A stretch of 64,000 bases of DNA from Clostridiaceae bacterium (lineage in GTDB: Bacteria; Bacillota; Clostridia; Lachnospirales; Lachnospiraceae). The DNA lies in assembly GCA_910575585.1 (NCBI GenBank), contig CAJTGF010000025.1:1-64000 (forward strand). The letters are read 5' to 3'. Shown piece by piece: positions 6,458 through 16,621 of the stretch; the stretch's first letter is position 1, and the number at the start of each line of letters is the position of its first letter. The position numbers were made by a program, and so were the translations under genes. Below the pieces are notes generated by a model. That model saw only the letters and a program-made list of their open reading frames with translations. It had not been told where the DNA came from and did no database searches.

Positions 6458-7804
6458 CTATCCCATCTTTCTGGCTTTCAGATAATCATCAATCCTCCTC
6501 TTAATCTCCGTAGATTTCAGATATTTCAACAGATAGCCCTCGGGTTTCAAGGACAATATCTTGGTAACGATCTCCCCTTCGTCTTTGCTGGTCAGGAAAA
6601 TAATGGGGATATCCGCAAACTCCTCCTCGGACCGCAGCATCTCAAACACATGCTTCCCGTCGCACACCGGCATCTCATAGTCCAGCAACACCAGATCCGG
6701 CCTGTTTAACGTGATCGCCCGAATCGCCGATGTGCCGGAACTGGCCACAGAGACATCGTAGTTGACGCATAAAAGCTGCTTTATGCCCTGGCGGATGGTT
6801 ATGGAATCATCCACCACAAGCACCTTCTGTCTGGAATCCTCCCTCTTCTTAAGATACTTTTCAATCTCCGACAGTTCGTTGTGGACCTTTAAGGGAGTTC
6901 CCCCTTCCTCCAAAAGCCAGTGGGGCGCAATGACACAGAAAGCAAAATATCCCTGATCCGTGTTAAACAGCAGGCTGATTTCGGGATTCTCCTTTTCCAG
7001 CAATTTTTGGAACTGTTCATAAGTCAGGAAACTTTCCTCAGTCATCTCATAGGTACTTATAGCCGGAACATAATCCATTACATGGCCCACAAACTGGCTC
7101 GCCGTATACCGCACCGCGTTCATAAACAGCACATCCAGCTTGCCGGAGCGAAGGCCCATCAGTTTTCCCATCGTATTGATCAGCACCTTTTCCTCAAAGA
7201 CCAGGATGACCTCCCATTTCTCCTCATCCTGCGGTCTGCTGTACACCAACCGGTAGTAGATGCCTTTTCCGAATTTCTCTCCTCCGTAAGCCTGGCTGAT
7301 GACCTTGGCTTTCAGCTGGAACATATTGCGCAGAAGTTCCTGGATCACCTGCTCCATAGCCTCCAGCTCCTCCTCCGGCAGAAGATTTCCCCACTTGCTG
7401 ACCGTCTGCCCTGTAATGGCCCTGTCCTCCGTCAGGGTATGCCCGATGAGCCACCCGGCGCAGACCGCCAGAAAGTGGCTGATTGCCTCTGGGGAATAAT
7501 CCGTCCGCCGCAGCTCCTGTTCCAGGGCCGGAAGCGTATTTTCCCGAAATCCTTTGTGAACCCGCCTGTGCGTTTCAAGCTCCTTGCAGCCGATCAGCTC
7601 CATGTATTTTTCTTCGTCCTCAAAGTGCTTTAAGGCGTGTTCCTTAAAATACTTTATCCCCTCCTGGCATGCCCGCATGCTTCTTTTCTCCTGGCCCCCA
7701 AGAGAAAAAAGCTTATTAATGATCCTAAAAAGTTTCTCATGGGCCTCGTCGATGATCTTTACTCCAATCTTAAACTCCTCTTTCCATATCAGCTGACTGT
7801 CCAT
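6458..7804 (-). CDS. Bacteriohemerythrin / CheX-like / receiver-domain fusion protein
   Basis: 448 residues with three parts. Residues 1-135 are a bacteriohemerythrin with the full di-iron ligand set: H22, H60 and E64 (KHFEDEE), H79, H83, H122 and D127. Residues about 140-300 look like the CheX/CheC-like phosphatase-type domain (a repeated strand-helix with a VLIN-MGKLMG segment); this is the least certain part. Residues 326-445 are a response-regulator receiver with VVDDS, phospho-acceptor D375 (LLDYEMP) and the LTSK threonine/lysine region. It probably senses oxygen and passes the signal through phosphorylation or dephosphorylation. No kinase is adjacent. A TATAAT at 7866-7871 (minus strand) is a likely -10 box. 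Confidence 0.8.
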   Translation of the reverse strand: MDSQLIWKEEFKIGVKIIDEAHEKLFRIINKLFSLGGQEKRSMRACQEGIKYFKEHALKHFEDEEKYMELIGCKELETHRRVHKGFRENTLPALEQELRRTDYSPEAISHFLAVCAGWLIGHTLTEDRAITGQTVSKWGNLLPEEELEAMEQVIQELLRNMFQLKAKVISQAYGGEKFGKGIYYRLVYSRPQDEEKWEVILVFEEKVLINTMGKLMGLRSGKLDVLFMNAVRYTASQFVGHVMDYVPAISTYEMTEESFLTYEQFQKLLEKENPEISLLFNTDQGYFAFCVIAPHWLLEEGGTPLKVHNELSEIEKYLKKREDSRQKVLVVDDSITIRQGIKQLLCVNYDVSVASSGTSAIRAITLNRPDLVLLDYEMPVCDGKHVFEMLRSEEEFADIPIIFLTSKDEGEIVTKILSLKPEGYLLKYLKSTEIKRRIDDYLKARKMG

Positions 7805-8767: not shown

Positions 8768-9529
8768 TCAAGGATCTTCCTCCTTTTGCGCGCTCTTTCG
8801 AATATACTGCCGATAATCAGCCGGGGAAAAACCTACCTTCTCCTTAAACACCCTGGAAAAATAATGCTGGCTGGCAAAGCCTGTCCTCTCCGCGATCTCC
8901 ACCAGCTTCATGTCCGGGCTCTGGACCAGCAAAGACACGGCCCTGTCGATCCGCATCCTGGTCAGAAGCTCCGAAAAAGAACTTCCTGTCTCCTGTTTAA
9001 TAAGCCTTGTAACATACGACTGGGACAGATGAAACGCATCTGCCAGCTCGCCCAGAGAAAACTGCTGCTTTGTAAAATTCTCCTGGATATACCCCAAGAT
9101 CTTCTCCTTGGTGGTGTCCTCTTTCTCCACAAAAACCTTCTGGGTCAGCTGCTCTTTGCGGATCTGCTCCAGCACCTTTTTCAGCAGTTCCATCAGCTCC
9201 CCCCGGTCAATGGGTTTCAGCAGATAATCCACCACATTGAGGTGGCAGGCCCTTCTGGCATACTGGAACTCGTCATGGCCGGAAATAATGATGAAACGGG
9301 TCCCGATCCCCCTCTTTTGAACCTCCTCGATCACATCCAACCCTGGCATTCCCGGCATATTGATGTCCATAAGAGCGATAAAAGGTTTCTGCTGGGCGAT
9401 CAGCTCCAAAGCCTGGAGACCGTTGCCCGCCGTCCCGCTGACATGGAGCGGAAGCCCTGATCTCTCCACCCAGGACTTAAGTCCGTTTCGCAGTATTACC
9501 TCGTCATCACAGATCACAATATCAACCAT
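8768..9529 (-). CDS. YesN-type response regulator with AraC output domain
   Basis: 253 residues. The receiver domain spans 1-120 with acidic pocket CDDE, phospho-acceptor D55 (LMDINMPG), IISGHDE and the LKPID lysine. An AraC-type double helix-turn-helix fills about 150-245 (SQSYVTRLIKQETGSSF and FASQHYFSRVFKEKVGFSP). It pairs with the LytS/YesM-type kinase whose gene overlaps its start by 8 bp. It probably activates nearby transport or redox genes, most plausibly the divergent urocanate-reductase-like gene at 11393. Confidence 0.92.
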   Translation of the reverse strand: MVDIVICDDEVILRNGLKSWVERSGLPLHVSGTAGNGLQALELIAQQKPFIALMDINMPGMPGLDVIEEVQKRGIGTRFIIISGHDEFQYARRACHLNVVDYLLKPIDRGELMELLKKVLEQIRKEQLTQKVFVEKEDTTKEKILGYIQENFTKQQFSLGELADAFHLSQSYVTRLIKQETGSSFSELLTRMRIDRAVSLLVQSPDMKLVEIAERTGFASQHYFSRVFKEKVGFSPADYRQYIRKSAQKEEDP

Positions 9530-11258
9530 AAAGCTCCTCCTCGTTCTCCTGGGGCAGTTCTGTGAGAACGACCCTTACACAGGTGCCTTTTCCCGCCTGG
9601 GATCTTACTGTCACCCCCGCGCCCTCTCCATAGAGAAGCCGGATACGGTTATTTACGTTAATAAGGCCGTAACTCTTTCCGGTCGTTCCCTCCCGCAGCT
9701 CTTTTTTCAGTTCCTCCAGCCGTTTTGTCTCTATCCCTACGCCGTCATCTTCCACCTCAATTACCAGCCGTCTCTCATTTTTCCCGCCTCCGGCTCCTTC
9801 CTGCCTGGTCCCCTCCTGCTGCGTCACCCGTATATAGATGGCGCCCGGCGCCATTTTCGGCTTGATCCCGTGTTGGATGGCATTTTCCACCAAAGGCTGC
9901 AAAATCAGCTTAAGTACCGGTAACGGCTCCCTGACTTCCACCTGAAACTCGTAGGCAAGCACGTCCTGAAACCGGATCTTCTGGATCTTCAGATAGCTTT
10001 TTACATGTTCCAGCTCCTTCTCCAGAGGGATGATCTCCCTGCCCCTGCTTAACGAAATCCGGAAAAATGTAGACAAGGCGCTTATCATAGTCACCATCTC
10101 CTCATCTTCCGTATCGTAGGCTTTGTACTGCAAGGTGTCCAGCGTATTATAGAGAAAATGAGGATTGATCTGGGCCTGGAGGACCCGCAGTTCCGCGTTC
10201 CGCTTCTCCCTTTCATTTTCCGCCGTCCGCAGCACCAGGCTGTGGACCCGCCTTACCATCTGGTCAAACGAGCGGGACAGCCGGGCGATCTCGTCCTGTC
10301 CTTTCATCTGCAGGCTTACCTGCCAGTCCCCTGTCTCCACCCTTTTCATAGCCTCGGTCAGCCTGCCGATGGGATTGGTGACGCTTCGGGCCACCAGAAC
10401 GCTGCATAAAAATAAGAGGATCATCACGATCAGAAGGACCATGGAAAGCTTCCATTTAAGCTGCCTGGTATCCTCCATAAGCCGGGAATTTTCAATAGAA
10501 GTGCAGAGATACCATTGCTCCGTGTAAGGGATCCGGGTGTAAAATACAGTGGCCGCCCCGTTTTCCATGTCCAAAAAGCCCTTTTCCTCCTTGCTAAGGT
10601 GGGGCAAAAGCGTTTCCACGGCCTTTTCGTCCGCTCCGGACCTGGTATAAATATTTCCCTTAGGGTCCATGATCCAGGACTGACCGTTGTAGAAATCCAG
10701 CTCCGCCACAATATCATGAAGCTTTTTTAAGGAAATAGCCGCATTGAGAAAGCCGTACACCTTGCCATCCCGGTTCCTCAAAGGGTAGCAGATCAGGGAG
10801 ATTTCCGCCTGATCTGTCCTGGAGATCACCGGAGCCGACAGCACATACTCCCGCTCCCCTTTCATGGCTTCATGAAAATACTCCCGCTCCGAAATGTCAA
10901 TATACCGCTCCGGGCTGACCCAGCCAATGCCGTCTTTGTACCCCACGGCAAACGTCCCCCACTCATTGCCGTACTGAGTCCCCAGGTTCTCGTTAAGGCG
11001 GCCGATATATGAGACCGCCTCCTGGATCATTCCCTCCTCCAAGGCACTGTTCATGGCAATGACCCGCAGCTCCGTCAGACGCTGCCCCAGCCACTGGCCC
11101 ACCTCCTGGGATTTAAATTCAAAAGACTGGGTGGAAAAGGAATCTACCATGTTGCTGTTGGTCCTCTCAACGGCATTGGCGGAGAAAAACATCAAAAACA
11201 GAAATCCCCCTGTAAACAGCAGGGAAAACAATATCAGAATCTTGTTTTGCAGTCTCAT
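9522..11258 (-). CDS. LytS/YesM-type sensor histidine kinase with extracellular Cache-like sensor
   Basis: 578 residues when started at the ATG behind GAGG; a GTG two codons earlier sits too close to the ribosome binding site. Order: membrane helix (about 8-27), extracellular dCache-like sensor (30-265; YIDISEREYFHEAMKGE and SLICYPLRNRDGKVYGFLNAAISL are typical), membrane helix (about 270-290), HAMP (295-345), His_kinase domain with phospho-acceptor H367 in NPHFLYN, and a HATPase with LVENAIQHGIKP and VEDDGVG. It senses a small ligand outside the cell and phosphorylates the YesN-type partner encoded immediately downstream. It diverges from an exported flavoprotein lipoprotein, which suggests a shared ligand or substrate. 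Confidence 0.93.
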   Translation of the reverse strand: MRLQNKILILFSLLFTGGFLFLMFFSANAVERTNSNMVDSFSTQSFEFKSQEVGQWLGQRLTELRVIAMNSALEEGMIQEAVSYIGRLNENLGTQYGNEWGTFAVGYKDGIGWVSPERYIDISEREYFHEAMKGEREYVLSAPVISRTDQAEISLICYPLRNRDGKVYGFLNAAISLKKLHDIVAELDFYNGQSWIMDPKGNIYTRSGADEKAVETLLPHLSKEEKGFLDMENGAATVFYTRIPYTEQWYLCTSIENSRLMEDTRQLKWKLSMVLLIVMILLFLCSVLVARSVTNPIGRLTEAMKRVETGDWQVSLQMKGQDEIARLSRSFDQMVRRVHSLVLRTAENEREKRNAELRVLQAQINPHFLYNTLDTLQYKAYDTEDEEMVTMISALSTFFRISLSRGREIIPLEKELEHVKSYLKIQKIRFQDVLAYEFQVEVREPLPVLKLILQPLVENAIQHGIKPKMAPGAIYIRVTQQEGTRQEGAGGGKNERRLVIEVEDDGVGIETKRLEELKKELREGTTGKSYGLINVNNRIRLLYGEGAGVTVRSQAGKGTCVRVVLTELPQENEEELYG

Positions 11259-11392
11259 GATCACACCTCAAATAGGGTTCGGTTCGTAAAAGTGCAAATT
11301 CCCGAAAAATACTCCAAATACATTTTTCCAATATTATACTATACTATTTGTGTTAAATGAATCACAATCTCAAAAAAAATGGAGGGAACATT

Positions 11393-13228
11393 ATGAAAAG
11401 ATTGACAGGCATCCTTTTAAGCTCTGCTCTGGTCCTTTCTCTGACCGCATGCTCCGGTTCCGCCCCCAGCGAAACCACTGCTCCGGCTCCTGAAACGACC
11501 ACTGCCGCCCAGACCGAAGCGCCGGAGACGGAAACGGAAGCCGCAGGTATTCCAGACGGCACCTATGAGGGCGAAGGAACCGGTAAAGGCGGGGCCATCA
11601 AGGTTGAGCTGACTATGAAGGATTCCCAGATCGCGGATATCAAAGTGGTGGAGCACCAGGAAACTCCCGGATACGCCGACGCCATGGACAAGCTTCGCGA
11701 GACCATGATACTTACCAACCAGATCGATGTGGATATGGTTTCCGGAGCCACCCTTTCTTCTACAGGCTTTCTTGAGGCTGTAAATAACGCCTTCGAGAAG
11801 ACAGGGGCGGCTTCTGATCTGCTGGTGGCAAAGGCTGCGGCGGCTTCTGTGGAAAAAGCCGACCACTATGACGCGGACGTTATTATCGTAGGCGCAGGCG
11901 GAGCCGGACTTTCCGCTGCCATCACGGCTGCCGAGGACGGAGCCAGCGTTATTGTAGTTGAGAAGATGAACAACACAGGCGGAAACACCCTGATCTCCGG
12001 CGGCGAGATGGCTGCTCCCGGCAACTGGCTCCAGGAGGGCGAGGGCATCGACGACAGCGCCGACCAGTTTTATCAGGATATTTTAACAGGCGGCGACAAT
12101 GAGAACGACCCGGAGCTGGTCCGCGTTCTTGCTGACAACGCAATGGATGCCGCTATCTGGCTGAGGGACGACGTAAAAGTCCAGTTTGAGGATTATATGC
12201 TGTTCTTCGGCGGCCATTCCGTAAAGCGCTCCCTTGTTCCCTTAAATGCCAGCGGCGTGGAGCTGATCGAGAAGCTTCAGGCAAAGGCCGAGTCCCTGGG
12301 CGTGGAGATCCACACCAACACCGCGGCTGTGGAGCTGGTACAGACAGACGGAAAAGTGACTGCCGTAAAAGCCCAGTCCGACGGACAGGATATTACTTAC
12401 AACGCGGCCAAAGGCGTGATCCTGGCTACCGGCGGTTTCGGCTCCAACCTGGAGATGCGCATTGCCAACAACCCGGATATGGATGAAAAGATCCTGTCCA
12501 CCAACTCCGTAGGAAGCACCGGCGACGGCATTGTCATGGCAGAGGCATTGGGCGCTCAGACCGTTGACATGCAGTATATCCAGACCTATCCTACCTGCGA
12601 CCCGGAGACGGGAACTCTTCTCTATGTAGGCGATGTCCGTCTGGAGGGACGCGCCATCCTGGTAAATCTGGAAGGAAAACGTTTTGTGGAGGAACTGGAG
12701 CGGCGCGATGTGATCTCCATGGCTGTGAAGGCTCAGACCGGCGGCGTATCCTACATGTTCTGGGATGAGGCCAGCATGCAGGCGTCCGGCGTAAATGCCA
12801 GCCACAAGAAAGAGTATGATAATCTGATCGAAAGAGGGATCCTTGTGAAAGCGGACACAGTGGAAGAAGCTGCCGCTCATTTCGGAATCGACGCCAAAGA
12901 ACTGCAGGCTACCATTGACCGGTATAATCAGTACTGCGCCGACGGGAAAGATCTGGAATTTAATAAGAGAGGCGAACTGACCGCGTTTACCGACGGGCCT
13001 TACTACATCATGAAGACCACGCCTGCCATCCACCACACCATGGGCGGATTGAAGATTAACACCAAGGCGCAGGTTCTCACTAAGGAAAATGAAGTGATCC
13101 CCGGCCTTTATGCTGCCGGAGAGGTAACGGGAGATATCCACGGAACCAACCGCCTGGGCTCTGACGCCATTGCCGATATAACCGTATTTGGCCGGATTGC
13201 CGGACATAACGCGGCGGCTGGAGAATAA
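11393..13228 (+). CDS. urdA: Exported flavoprotein reductase, probable urocanate reductase (FMN-binding plus FAD-binding)
   Basis: 611 residues from the ATG behind GGAGGG. A lipoprotein signal ends LSLTAC with Cys20, followed by a Ser/Thr/Glu/Pro linker. An FMN-binding domain (52-140) carries SGATLS, where S122 would hold the covalent FMN. The FAD-binding fumarate-reductase fold starts with VIIVGAGGAGLSAA at 163. Active-site residues read Y399, D414, R437, H547 and R587. In Shewanella UrdA the set is Y373, D388, R411, H520 and R560, with spacings +15, +38 and 40 between the last two; this protein matches them all. Fumarate reductases have His in place of the Tyr. It would reduce urocanate to imidazole propionate on the outer face of the membrane. 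The residue comparison is from memory; related acrylate-type substrates remain possible. Confidence 0.75.
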   Translation: MKRLTGILLSSALVLSLTACSGSAPSETTAPAPETTTAAQTEAPETETEAAGIPDGTYEGEGTGKGGAIKVELTMKDSQIADIKVVEHQETPGYADAMDKLRETMILTNQIDVDMVSGATLSSTGFLEAVNNAFEKTGAASDLLVAKAAAASVEKADHYDADVIIVGAGGAGLSAAITAAEDGASVIVVEKMNNTGGNTLISGGEMAAPGNWLQEGEGIDDSADQFYQDILTGGDNENDPELVRVLADNAMDAAIWLRDDVKVQFEDYMLFFGGHSVKRSLVPLNASGVELIEKLQAKAESLGVEIHTNTAAVELVQTDGKVTAVKAQSDGQDITYNAAKGVILATGGFGSNLEMRIANNPDMDEKILSTNSVGSTGDGIVMAEALGAQTVDMQYIQTYPTCDPETGTLLYVGDVRLEGRAILVNLEGKRFVEELERRDVISMAVKAQTGGVSYMFWDEASMQASGVNASHKKEYDNLIERGILVKADTVEEAAAHFGIDAKELQATIDRYNQYCADGKDLEFNKRGELTAFTDGPYYIMKTTPAIHHTMGGLKINTKAQVLTKENEVIPGLYAAGEVTGDIHGTNRLGSDAIADITVFGRIAGHNAAAGE

Positions 13229-13307: not shown

Positions 13308-14333
13308 TTATTGGTTTCGGCCATAAGCCTCCATAATTTGATCCGCCAGCTCCCTGGCAGATATGAGTTCCCGGTTTGGATAACCGCAGATATATTTGGG
13401 GTAACCGCTGTTTTTCAGCCCTTCTATAAGGATAATATCCGCCTCCCCAAATGCCTCTATCAGCATTTTTTCATCCGGTTCCTCATATTCTTTTGTGATC
13501 ATCAGCCGTTTGGAAGAGTAAACGGCTGTCCCGTAAGCCCCTGCCTTCTGAAAACGGTAACTGTCGGTCCCCGGAACATCGCTTTCAAAATCGTGGCCGT
13601 CGTGTTTAATAACCGCCACCTTGAACCCTCTGCTTTTTAATTCCGGGATCAGTTTGGTAAGCAATGTGGTCTTTCCTGAATTTTTATACCCGCTGATGGC
13701 AAATACCAATGGCTTTGGCTTCTTTCCCAACAACTGACAATATTCCTCAGGGGTATTAATGTTGATGCTGCTTCTGCTGTCCCTTTCCAGTCCAACCGTT
13801 CGGCAGCCTGCTTTTTCTATGGCTTCCATCATCTTCCATCTTCCTTCCAAAAGCCGCTCCAAAAATACAGGCAGAACCTCTTTCGGGTAAATACCGGGAA
13901 ACGGAAAACACCTACCGTCTTTCTCTGTTATGACGATCTCCCCGTATTTCCGGTATTCTTCTGTAAGCCGTTCCACCAGCTTTCCGTCTAAAAACGGCAT
14001 ATCGCAGGCAGCCGCCAAAAGGGCTTCCTGCGGGCAAAGCTCCAGTCCCGTGCAAATTGCCCCTAATGGCCCCGTCCTGGGATACTTGTCCGCAATGAGA
14101 GGCAGCCCCGCCCCTATGTACGGCTCCGGGATGTCCACGGAAAGATATACCGCGGTCAGAGCAGACATGCCTGTAAGGATACGGCGGTAAAACGGCGCCC
14201 CTTCGTATTCCAAAAACAGTTTCTTTTTGCCTCCCATTCTCCGGTTTTCGCCGCCGGACAGAAGGTAGCCTGCTATCACCGGATGCGGGAGTCGGTTTTC
14301 TTTCTGTTCCATATCCGTTACCTGTTCTGTCAT
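13308..14333 (-). CDS. MobA-MobB fusion: molybdenum cofactor guanylyltransferase / GTP-binding accessory protein
   Basis: 341 residues. The first about 205 are MobA: LLSGGENRRMGGKKKLFLEY (GTP/cofactor loop) and ACDMPFLDG, then TPEEY at the end. The last about 130 are MobB with a P-loop SGYKNSGKTTLLTK and VIKHDGHDFE. MobA attaches GMP to molybdopterin to make the MGD form used by the DMSO-reductase family; MobB assists by binding GTP. The start overlaps the stop of the upstream molybdoenzyme gene (ATGA), so the two are translationally coupled. This supports a dedicated cofactor-delivery role. Fused MobA-MobB proteins are known in other bacteria. Confidence 0.9.
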   Translation of the reverse strand: MTEQVTDMEQKENRLPHPVIAGYLLSGGENRRMGGKKKLFLEYEGAPFYRRILTGMSALTAVYLSVDIPEPYIGAGLPLIADKYPRTGPLGAICTGLELCPQEALLAAACDMPFLDGKLVERLTEEYRKYGEIVITEKDGRCFPFPGIYPKEVLPVFLERLLEGRWKMMEAIEKAGCRTVGLERDSRSSININTPEEYCQLLGKKPKPLVFAISGYKNSGKTTLLTKLIPELKSRGFKVAVIKHDGHDFESDVPGTDSYRFQKAGAYGTAVYSSKRLMITKEYEEPDEKMLIEAFGEADIILIEGLKNSGYPKYICGYPNRELISARELADQIMEAYGRNQ

Positions 14334-16621
14334 AAATCTTTATCTAATTCATCTGCCTTCTCCACCTGAACCAGATTCGTATGCTGGGGATTCCCTCTTG
14401 CGTACGGGGTAGGTCTCAAAGACGTGAGCACATTGATAGAACCGCCGGTATCCGTTCCATCTTTATCCGGGCGATACCAAGCTCCCTGGGACAGAGCCGT
14501 CACCCCTGCCATGATCCTGTCCGTCACTTTCACGGGAATCTTCATGCGCCCCCTGTCATTCCAGACCAATGCCCTATCCCCGTCTTTCAGTCCTCTCTCC
14601 CCGGCATCCTTCGGATGCATCCAAAGCATCTGAGGATCCAGCTTTTCCATGGCCCGGTTGTTGTCGTGGATGCTGTGACATCTGCGCTTTGTGTGCCATC
14701 CGATAAGCTGCAGCGGATATTTTTCCGCCAGCCCGTCGCCCGCTCCCTCCGGCGGTTCTACATACCTGGGGATAGCCGGAAAAAAGTCTCTGTATTGGGT
14801 TCGGTACACTTTCTCGGAAAAAATCTCAATCTTGCCGCTTTTCGTAGGAAAGGGATAGCGGTCCGGGTCGCTGCGCTCCTTCTCAAAGGCGATAACTGCA
14901 GGGTTATTTTTATAACGATAGATCCCTGCCTCCTTAAACTCCCCATATTCCGGAAGTTCCCGTTCCCTGGTCCGCAGTTCATTATAGATAAATTCCAGCC
15001 ACTGTTCCTTGGTCCTGCCCTGGGAAAATTCCCGGCCAAGCCCAATCTTTTCCGCCACCTCACACAGCCAGTCATACTCAAACCGGCACTCGTATAAAGG
15101 CTGGATCACCTGATTGCCGAATCCGAGAAAATCTCCGTACTGCCAGGGCATCGTAATATTTTCGCACTCAAACATGGACACCCCCGGAAGAAGGATATCC
15201 GCGTATTTAGCGCTGGCAGTCATAAAAATGTCGCTGCACACAATAAACTCGCATTTGGATGTGTCTTTTAGGATCTGGGACGTGCGGTTTATGTGGCTGT
15301 GCTGATTTATGAGGCAGTTGCCCGCCAGGTTCAGGATCATCTTAATATCGCTGGCCAGGCAAAGGGGCCGGTTTTCCCGGTCCCCGCCGCTTCCGCTGCC
15401 ATCTGCCCTCACCCCGTCCAGCTCTGTCATCTCATGGCCCCGCACCACCGCCTCGGTCCACAGGAACACCGGGATCTTCATGCCGTAAGGATTGACCGGC
15501 TGGGGAAAAGATGGGTTCTGGTGCCTGTTACAATCCGCGGCTCCGCTGGCCCAGCCGCCGCTAAGCCCCACATTTCCCGTAAGGCACGCCAGCATAATAC
15601 CGCCTCTGGCAATCTGCTCTCCGCAGGCGTGACGCTGGGGGCCGTAGCCCTGGATCAGCGCCCCCGGCTTTGCCCTGCCGTATTGCACCGCCAAACGGCA
15701 GATCTGCTCTGCGCTTACTCCTGTGATCCTTTCCGCCCACTGGGGAGTCTTGGGGATCTGGTCCTTCTCCCCCAGAAGATAAGACAGATAGCACTCCGAA
15801 CCGTCAATCCCCTCTGGCATGTGTTCCCTGTCAAACCCAAGACAGCACCGGTCCGTAAACGCTTTGTCCCACAGACCTTCTTTTACGATCACATAGGCCA
15901 TGGCATCCATCATGGCGCTGTCCGAAGCCGGGCGTATGGGGATCCACTCCGCTTCCAGCTGAAGGACCGTGTCGTTTTTTCTGGGGTCCACCACAACAAT
16001 GGGGATACCTTTTTCCTTGGCCTTCTTCAGATAATACATGGTGCCGCAGTCAAATTTCGTCTCTGCCGGATTGTGTCCCCACAAAATGATCAGGTTGGCG
16101 TTAAGCCAGTCCTCCAGGCTGTTTCCCGTCTCGCAGGTCCCGTACATCAGCTGGGTGGCCTGGCGGATACAGGCGGTGCTGTAGGAATTATAGTAATCCA
16201 GAAAACCCCCGTCCAAACTTAAAAGCCGCTTAGCCAGGCTGTTTCCCCTCATAAGGGCGCTGACTCCCGTGGCATAATTAACAAACCGGGAACCTGGACC
16301 GTAAGCGTCCCGAATCCGTGTCCATTCCGATGCGATGGTATCCACAGCCTCCTCCCAGGTGATCCGCTGAAATTTCCCCTGTCCCCTTTCGCCTGCCCGC
16401 TTCATAGGCCAGCGAAGCCTGTCCTCGCCCAGAAACGTTTTGTGATAATTAAGCCCGCGGGCACAGGCAGTCAGCGGGATGCTTCCCCCTGCCTCCGCCC
16501 ACGTGTCGGTTGTCAACTTTTCTATCTTGCCGTTCCGCACATGGGCGAGGATGACGCAGCGGCCTCCGCAGTTATTGCGGCCTGTAGTGCGGATGATCTT
16601 CACTTCTTCCTGACAATCCAT
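14330..16621 (-). CDS. Molybdopterin-dependent oxidoreductase of the DMSO reductase family
   Basis: 763 residues with no Tat signal, so cytoplasmic. The N-terminal cluster motif is RTTGRNNCGGRCVILAHVRN with C18, C22 and, later, C53; the position of the usual first cysteine is Gly14, so the cluster may be atypical. The active site LDYYNSYSTACIRQ puts Ser148 as the likely molybdenum ligand, as in DMSO/TMAO reductases. WGHNPAET, QGYGPQRHACGEQ and the C-terminal GGSINVLTSLRPTPYARGNP match MGD-binding segments. It would reduce an S- or N-oxide or remove a hydroxyl from an aromatic, with two electrons. No iron-sulfur or membrane-anchor subunit is nearby, so the electron donor is unknown. It is coupled to mobA-mobB and lies downstream of a MerR-type promoter. 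Confidence 0.85.
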   Translation of the reverse strand: MDCQEEVKIIRTTGRNNCGGRCVILAHVRNGKIEKLTTDTWAEAGGSIPLTACARGLNYHKTFLGEDRLRWPMKRAGERGQGKFQRITWEEAVDTIASEWTRIRDAYGPGSRFVNYATGVSALMRGNSLAKRLLSLDGGFLDYYNSYSTACIRQATQLMYGTCETGNSLEDWLNANLIILWGHNPAETKFDCGTMYYLKKAKEKGIPIVVVDPRKNDTVLQLEAEWIPIRPASDSAMMDAMAYVIVKEGLWDKAFTDRCCLGFDREHMPEGIDGSECYLSYLLGEKDQIPKTPQWAERITGVSAEQICRLAVQYGRAKPGALIQGYGPQRHACGEQIARGGIMLACLTGNVGLSGGWASGAADCNRHQNPSFPQPVNPYGMKIPVFLWTEAVVRGHEMTELDGVRADGSGSGGDRENRPLCLASDIKMILNLAGNCLINQHSHINRTSQILKDTSKCEFIVCSDIFMTASAKYADILLPGVSMFECENITMPWQYGDFLGFGNQVIQPLYECRFEYDWLCEVAEKIGLGREFSQGRTKEQWLEFIYNELRTRERELPEYGEFKEAGIYRYKNNPAVIAFEKERSDPDRYPFPTKSGKIEIFSEKVYRTQYRDFFPAIPRYVEPPEGAGDGLAEKYPLQLIGWHTKRRCHSIHDNNRAMEKLDPQMLWMHPKDAGERGLKDGDRALVWNDRGRMKIPVKVTDRIMAGVTALSQGAWYRPDKDGTDTGGSINVLTSLRPTPYARGNPQHTNLVQVEKADELDKDL

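What the first reader, a model, noticed from the sequence alone, without database searches (positions are those of the whole stretch)
11393..13228. Flavoprotein lipoprotein with the complete urocanate-reductase residue set
Y399, D414, R437, H547 and R587 keep the spacing of UrdA Y373, D388, R411, H520 and R560 (+15, +38, and 40 between the last two). Fumarate reductases carry His at the first position. The protein is exported as a lipoprotein with a covalent-FMN motif. Urocanate reductase makes imidazole propionate, a gut metabolite linked with impaired insulin signalling, so a new carrier would matter.
Basis: partly seen in the sequence, partly recalled or inferred. Interest (0 to 1): 0.8.

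Follow-up and report, generated by a model that had tools for sequence, protein, structure and literature searches.

The report
Gut clostridial urocanate reductase with sensor
A gut bacterium of the Hungatella kind appears to carry an exported enzyme that turns urocanate into imidazole propionate, a metabolite linked with diabetes, beside its own sensor-regulator pair, although it seems unable to make urocanate itself.

Summary
The lipoprotein (11393-13228) has FMN_bind and FAD_binding_2 domains and is 51% identical to Shewanella UrdA, 40% to Fcc3. It keeps Tyr373, Asp388, Arg411, His520 and Arg560, and also Glu177 and Phe245, whose mutation slows UrdA (PMC10882135, passages). It groups with Shewanella UrdA and the hutH-linked Parasutterella gene; grouping it with fumarate reductases is rejected (AU p = 0.0023). 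Its model best matches UrdA 6T86. It is probably a urocanate reductase, but two of three lid Phe are Leu and activity is untested.
New here: a divergent dCache kinase and AraC-type regulator adjoin the gene in 7 of 8 genomes with its GDVR motif, in Hungatella-type, related and Sedimentibacter-type genomes. A shared 12-base motif lies between. The host has ApbE but no detectable histidine ammonia-lyase or urocanase, so it probably depends on urocanate made by others.

The parts
11393..13228 (+). urdA-like gene: exported lipoprotein, FMN_bind + FAD_binding_2, 611 aa
11393..11452 (+). signal peptide with lipobox LTAC, lipidated Cys20
   Evidence: read from the translation; lipobox rule recalled
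11381..11386 (+). ribosome-binding site GGAGGG
   Evidence: conserved in three relatives
11582..11794 (+). FMN_bind domain (residues 64-134)
   Evidence: Pfam PF04205, E 6.1e-18
11741..11761 (+). SGATLSS flavinylation motif (residues 117-123)
   Evidence: [S/T]GA[S/T] motif as described in PMC8238504 (passages)
11876..13162 (+). FAD_binding_2 reductase domain (residues 162-590)
   Evidence: Pfam PF00890, E 3.2e-83
12005..12007 (+). Glu205 = UrdA Glu177 (imidazole contact)
12206..12208 (+). Phe272 = UrdA Phe245 (lid)
12587..12589 (+). Tyr399 = UrdA Tyr373 (His in fumarate reductases)
12632..12634 (+). Asp414 = UrdA Asp388 (imidazole contact)
12704..12706 (+).
13031..13033 (+). His547 = UrdA His520
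13151..13153 (+). Arg587 = UrdA Arg560
11282..11298 (.). conserved operator-like motif GTTCGTAAAAGTGCAAA between kinase and reductase genes
9522..11258 (-). divergent YesM-type sensor histidine kinase with dCache_1 extracellular domain
   Evidence: Pfam; conserved partner
8768..9529 (-). response regulator with AraC-type DNA-binding domain (YesN type)
   Evidence: Pfam; conserved partner

Best explanation
The gene encodes a cell-surface, flavinylated urocanate reductase (UrdA) of a Firmicutes lineage. Inferred mechanism: ApbE attaches FMN to the SGATLSS motif; electrons pass from the membrane (possibly Rnf and a five-FMN-domain protein encoded elsewhere in the genome) to this FMN and on to FAD. 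Urocanate is held with its carboxylate on R587, H547 and R438 and its imidazole on E205 and D414 under a hydrophobic lid; hydride from FAD N5 and a proton from R438 give imidazole propionate outside the cytoplasm. A dCache sensor kinase and AraC-type regulator, transcribed divergently, probably sense extracellular urocanate or a related ligand and activate the gene through the GTTCGTWAAAGT site. Lacking detectable HutH and urocanase, the host uses urocanate made by others as an electron sink. Shown: domains, residues, phylogeny, fold, cassette conservation, and HutH/urocanase search results. Inferred: substrate, electron path, ligand of the sensor, and operator function.
Against: F243 and F391 of the lid are L270 and L417, and backbone-contact G563 is S590. 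Two UrdA-clade sequences (L131, L132) have Phe at 373 and Gly at 388, and the tree puts them nearer to Shewanella UrdA than P0001 is (90/97; the alternative has p-AU 0.048 and 0.059), so a shared substrate is not bracketed by the tree. Sedimentibacter saalensis has two such cassettes with different residues at 387, which suggests substrate divergence. HutH was found in 0 of the 10 distinct Hungatella-type, same-family and rumen genomes searched. The kinase pair is absent beside the genes in L039, L040 and L146, the last of which has the GDVR motif. 21 of 60 UrdA-diagnostic positions match neither group (calculated).
Confidence: 0.72

Rival explanations
1. It is a respiratory reductase of a different imidazole or aryl acrylate (for example a substituted urocanate such as thiourocanate, or an aromatic acrylate), with urocanate at best a poor substrate.
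For: Lid residues F243 and F391 are Leu. The UrdA clade and its sisters contain divergent pockets (L131, L132, L148) and two cassettes in one Sedimentibacter genome. No HutH in the host.
Against: Both imidazole-contacting acids (E205, D414) and Y399 are kept, unlike in L131/L132. The small residue at 387 resembles UrdA Ala387. Thiourocanate as a substrate rests on recall: one search for it returned no paper.
Confidence: 0.22
2. It is an extracellular fumarate reductase of the FMN-linked Gram-positive type.
For: Same domain layout as flavinylated fumarate reductases; the general model TIGR01813 flavocytochrome c matches above its cut-off.
Against: Tyr at the His365 column and Gly at the proton-relay Glu column; all 61 His373 sequences have Glu387. 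Tree placement with them is rejected, p-AU 0.0023. The same genome has a separate His/Glu-type protein (L003).
Confidence: 0.03
3. It is a urocanate reductase gene, but the neighbouring two-component system is unrelated to it and the pairing is incidental.
For: YesM/YesN pairs are common in Lachnospiraceae (recalled). L039, L040 and L146 carry the reductase without it. In G210 the kinase beside the reductases is not among the matches. The operator pattern read backwards gives 0-2 hits per genome, so single hits alone are not rare.
Against: The reductase-adjacent kinase is the best match in 8 of the 9 searched genomes that have such a pair divergent from a UrdA-family gene, and the second full-length match in S. 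saalensis also adjoins a UrdA-like gene. The motif is found in 8 of 8 genomes with this subtype's cassette, each time in the intergenic region, and in 0 of 5 others.
Confidence: 0.1

Closest known systems
Urocanate reductase UrdA of Shewanella oneidensis (PDB 6T85-6T88)
   Same: FAD and clamp domains plus an FMN domain (the FMN part from PMC7921117); Y373, D388, R411, H520, R560, E177 and F245 conserved; best sequence and fold match
   Different: 51% identical in the reductase domains; L270 and L417 replace lid Phe243 and Phe391; Gly at 387, Ser at 563; Gram-positive-type lipoprotein; in Shewanella L041 the nearby regulator is of OmpR type; host without detectable HutH
hutH-linked UrdA of Parasutterella excrementihominis (L134)
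   Same: same clade; E177, F245, Y373, D388, R411, H520 and R560 the same; aligns over 556 residues
   Different: 48.7% identical; Phe at 243 and 391, Ala at 387, Gly at 563; next to an ammonia-lyase gene; no kinase homologue in the 18-kb stretch and only a weak distant regulator match
Flavocytochrome c3 fumarate reductase (Fcc3)
   Same: fold, FAD site, catalytic Arg/His/Arg
   Different: His365 and Glu377/378 replaced by Tyr399 and Gly413; haem domain instead of FMN domain
Flavinylated extracellular fumarate reductase of Gram-positive bacteria (FrdA of Listeria; described in PMC8238504, passages; not compared here)
   Same: FMN-linked extracytosolic reductase logic
   Different: substrate; this protein falls outside the His/Glu-type fumarate reductases that were sampled

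Membership tests
Urocanate reductase (UrdA) | Tyr (or another non-His residue) at position 373 | tested here: met
   Y399; criterion from PMC7676231 (passages)
Urocanate reductase (UrdA) | Asp388 and Glu177 contacting the imidazole | tested here: met
   D414, E205
Urocanate reductase (UrdA) | Arg411, His520 and Arg560 for carboxylate binding and proton donation | tested here: met
   R438, H547, R587
Urocanate reductase (UrdA) | Hydrophobic lid Phe243, Phe245, Phe391 | tested here: inconclusive
   Phe245 kept (F272); Phe243 is L270 and Phe391 is L417; hydrophobic but not aromatic
Urocanate reductase (UrdA) | N-terminal FMN_bind domain with flavinylation motif, and ApbE in the genome | tested here: met
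Urocanate reductase (UrdA) | Monophyly with characterised UrdA to the exclusion of fumarate reductases | tested here: met
   but the clade also holds L131 and L132 with altered pockets
Urocanate reductase (UrdA) | Reduces urocanate to imidazole propionate | not testable with these tools
   no assay possible
Reductive histidine pathway (HutH + UrdA in one organism) | hutH in the same genome | tested here: not met
   PF00221: 0 matches in G000 (96.9% complete); so not filed as a full pathway
Fumarate reductase (Fcc3/FrdA type) | His365 and Glu377/378 | tested here: not met
   Y399 and G413

The most novel reading that the evidence does not exclude
A gut Firmicutes lineage carries a self-contained circuit for urocanate: an outward-facing dCache sensor dedicated to urocanate, a regulator with essentially one target site in the genome, and a surface UrdA, so that imidazole propionate is made on demand from urocanate released by other organisms. 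The sensor would be an extracellular urocanate receptor.
Probability: 0.42. Interest if true: 0.68.

Novelty: new variant of a known kind. Interest (0 to 1): 0.52.

Why it matters
Imidazole propionate is associated with type 2 diabetes, and its producers have been identified in metagenomes by the residue at position 373 (PMC7676231 and PMC11872695, passages). This lineage would add a Hungatella-like producer that apparently cannot make urocanate itself, which makes a two-species (cross-feeding) origin of the metabolite directly testable. The conserved sensor-regulator cassette offers a way to test how production is switched on. The comparison also shows that Tyr373 alone is an insufficient marker and that Asp388, usually with Glu177, is a better one.

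Tried and rejected
Considered and rejected: fumarate reductase (residues, tree and AU test). Considered and kept as a rival: another acrylate as substrate; a literature search for thiourocanate with ergothioneine and reductase returned nothing. The longer start at 11357 was rejected because GGAGGG precedes ATG 11393 and three relatives keep it. Reading the five residues at fixed spacing was rejected in favour of the alignment, which moves R437 to R438.

Corrected on re-check: the AU test had forced one fumarate-type sequence (L107_8031) out of its own group, which inflated the cost to 331 log units (p-AU 4.5e-42). The repeat with that sequence in its group gives 54 log units and p-AU 0.0023, and this is the value used. 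A first AU test used a fast search and one constraint that was compatible with the best tree, so it is not used; a full-size rerun timed out. The AU tests used have 44 of the 99 tree sequences. I first took the cassette to be general for the GDVR motif; G388 has the motif and lacks the cassette.

Led nowhere: a plasmid search gave no close relative but supplied L131-L133. The 2024 survey of gut respiratory reductases (PMC11055453) is not held, so whether it lists this lineage is unknown. Other published UrdA proteins (Eggerthella lenta, Streptococcus mutans and others, named in PMC11872695, passages) could not be fetched by name and were not compared. Among the 10 papers listed, only PMC6933298 holds both urocanate reductase and Hungatella, and there the urocanate reductase is listed for Telmatospirillum (passages). 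The listings (20 of 48 shown; 19 of 19; 16 of 16; 10 of 11; 20 of 51) showed, by title and start of abstract, no paper on a two-component system for urdA.

Rows dropped before counts: duplicate loci (L001, L031-L033, L015, L016, L018, L026-L028, L030) and one weak second ORF of L055; before the alignment and tree, 12 distant own-genome paralogues; L047 (truncated) from both trees.

Full report
The gene. The ORF at 11393-13228 (+) encodes 611 residues with a lipobox (LTAC, Cys20), an FMN_bind domain with SGATLSS (residues 117-123), and a FAD_binding_2 domain. GGAGGG precedes ATG 11393. Among the 25 best NCBIfam rows shown, only the general TIGR01813 flavocytochrome c model is above its cut-off. 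The window lies in a 6.13-Mb assembly of 253 contigs, 96.9% complete.

The residues. Against UrdA 6T85 the protein is 51% identical, against Fcc3 40%. Numbering the PDB chain so that its Tyr lies at 373 reproduces the UrdA residues named in PMC7921117 (section 6, first of two parts, and section 10 read). The mapping to this protein is E177->E205, F243->L270, F245->F272, Y373->Y399, A387->G413, D388->D414, R390->R416, F391->L417, R411->R438, H520->H547, R560->R587, G563->S590 (with a quicker alignment, set F243 one residue later). PMC10882135 (passages) reports losses in flavin oxidation rate of 9-fold for E177A, 600-fold for D388A and 700-fold for F245A (its table values imply more for F245A); all three residues are kept here. 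PMC7921117 lists three substitutions that set UrdA apart (Tyr373, Ala387, Phe391). Here they are Tyr, Gly and Leu, so the fumarate-type His, Glu and Gly are absent but two of the three are not identical to UrdA.

Is it chance? A scan of bacterial genomes with an alignment of P0001 and UrdA found 108 relatives and kept the best 80. In the final alignment of 100 sequences, 61 have His373 and all 61 have Glu387; 28 have Tyr373. Of the 28, 23 have D388, and 22 of those 23 have E177 (the exception is G388); no sequence without Tyr373 has D388. Two Tyr373 proteins (L094, L105) lack the catalytic residues and two (L148) have Tyr at 388. The combination therefore marks one lineage, while Tyr373 alone does not.

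Phylogeny. With 99 sequences, P0001, its Hungatella-type kin, a 71%-identical same-family gene (G086), Sedimentibacter-type genes, rumen MAGs, G388 and G432 group with Shewanella UrdA, the hutH-adjacent Parasutterella gene and two genes with altered pockets (L131, L132), support 93.2/98 (SH-aLRT/UFBoot). Within this, the join of G432 to the P0001 group is weak (5.9/57). In a 44-sequence subset, forcing the P0001 lineage into the fumarate reductases costs 54 log-likelihood units (p-AU 0.0023). Uniting it with proteobacterial UrdA to the exclusion of L131/L132 costs 9 and is borderline (p-AU 0.048, 0.059). Membership in the UrdA clade is supported; a substrate shared with Shewanella UrdA follows from the kept residues more than from the tree.

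Functional anchor. In P. excrementihominis a gene 61% identical to Shewanella UrdA and 48.7% to P0001 lies directly before a gene matching PF00221. PMC13320830 (passages) reports that this species converts labelled histidine to imidazole propionate and that hutH lies next to urdA in Burkholderiaceae. It also reports that all urdA-bearing strains it tested convert urocanate, while only those with hutH as well convert histidine; urdA without hutH is the situation here.

Surroundings. Upstream and divergent are a sensor kinase (dCache_1, HAMP, His_kinase, HATPase_c; 9522-11258) and a response regulator with AraC-type helix-turn-helix (8768-9529). The same divergent trio occurs in L034-L038 and the partial L047 and in G086 and G432. 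Of the 8 genomes whose copy reads GDVR at 387-390 (G000, G003, G010, G011, G086, G064, G065, G388), 7 have it; G388 does not, nor do the two rumen loci L039/L040 (ADVR). Gene neighbours beyond the trio differ between L034/L036, L035 and the Sedimentibacter-type loci, so the trio is the conserved unit. In a kinase search of 11 genomes, nine have a kinase-regulator pair divergent from a UrdA-family gene. In 8 of them the adjacent kinase is the best match (G000, G003, G010, G011, G086, G064, G065, G432). In the ninth, G210, where the pair lies between two divergent reductases and the kinase is read as two ORFs, it was not among the matches at this threshold. G388 and G066 gave none. The only other full-length match, in S. 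saalensis, adjoins a second UrdA-like gene of a DDAR type.

Operator-like motif. GTTCGTWAAAGT is perfectly kept between kinase and reductase genes in the window, L034-L038, L047 and L145. With GTTCGTWAAAGTKMAAA and up to one mismatch, each of 8 genomes with a cassette of this subtype has exactly one match, always in this intergenic region (G000, G003, G010, G011, G086, G064, G065, and G071, whose reductase gene is cut off by the contig end). G432, G210, G388, G066 and G067 have none. Caution: the pattern was derived from these same loci, and the backwards control gives 0-2 hits per genome, so it is the shared position and not the single count that is informative. In the window one match was found against 0.04 expected.

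Metabolic setting. The host genome has no match to PF00221 (HutH and relatives) or PF01175 (urocanase) and one ApbE. PF00221 was found in 0 of 10 distinct genomes (G000, G003, G010, G011, G066, G067, G086, G210, G388, G432). It was found in 3 of 3 Sedimentibacter-type genomes (two titled Sedimentibacter, one Firmicutes bacterium UBA6113), 4 of 4 Shewanella and 1 of 1 Parasutterella. G061-G063 are counted as the same assemblies as G011, G003 and G010 because sizes agree and, for G003, the contig length too. Some of these genomes are incomplete. Close relatives were found in 4 of 396 other genomes sampled from the family (E <= 1e-140, two divergent copies in G210 included) and in 3 of 25 other genus members (E <= 1e-150). 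The host also has an rnf cluster followed within about 4 kb by a protein with five FMN_bind domains. In G003/L035 the urdA trio lies between a block with apbE and a block with a three-FMN-domain homologue of that protein; no rnf homologue was matched in the stretch examined there. PMC8238504 (passages) describes multi-flavinylated proteins as possible multi-step electron routes, so Rnf to multi-FMN protein to UrdA is a reasonable but untested route.

Verdict. The additions are the pocket differences, the conserved sensor-regulator cassette with its motif, and the apparent lack of a histidine route to urocanate.

Noticed in passing
L131:3131-5668 and L132:3947-5665: UrdA-clade reductases in Cetobacterium and on a Paraclostridium plasmid with Phe at 373, Gly at 388, Gly at 177 and Phe at 391, which suggests a different, perhaps aromatic, acrylate substrate.
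   Followed up: partly
L148:6517-13049: In G210 a kinase-regulator pair lies between two related reductases with Tyr373 but Tyr at 388 and a changed lid (Ser243, Tyr245): a possible variant with another substrate. The kinase is read as two ORFs.
   Followed up: partly
L151:5384-9842: Sedimentibacter saalensis has a second reductase-kinase-regulator cassette (56% to P0001, DDAR type) without the GTTCGTWAAAGT site.
   Followed up: partly
L149:939-8995: Host rnf cluster followed by DUF5722 and a protein with five FMN_bind domains, a possible multi-flavin electron conduit.
   Followed up: partly
14330-16621 and 13308-14333: DMSO/selenate reductase-like catalytic subunit (TIGR02166, above cut-off) beside a MobA-MobB fusion protein; partner subunits were not searched for.
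   Followed up: no
6458-7804: Hemerythrin domain fused to a response-regulator receiver domain.
   Followed up: no
L042:5911-7659 and relatives: Shewanella UrdA precursors also start with a lipobox-like signal (IAGC or similar), so they may be lipoproteins too.
   Followed up: no
G000, whole genome: The P0001 search gave 39 matching segments in the same genome, so it has many reductase-like or FMN-binding relatives of unknown substrate.
   Followed up: no
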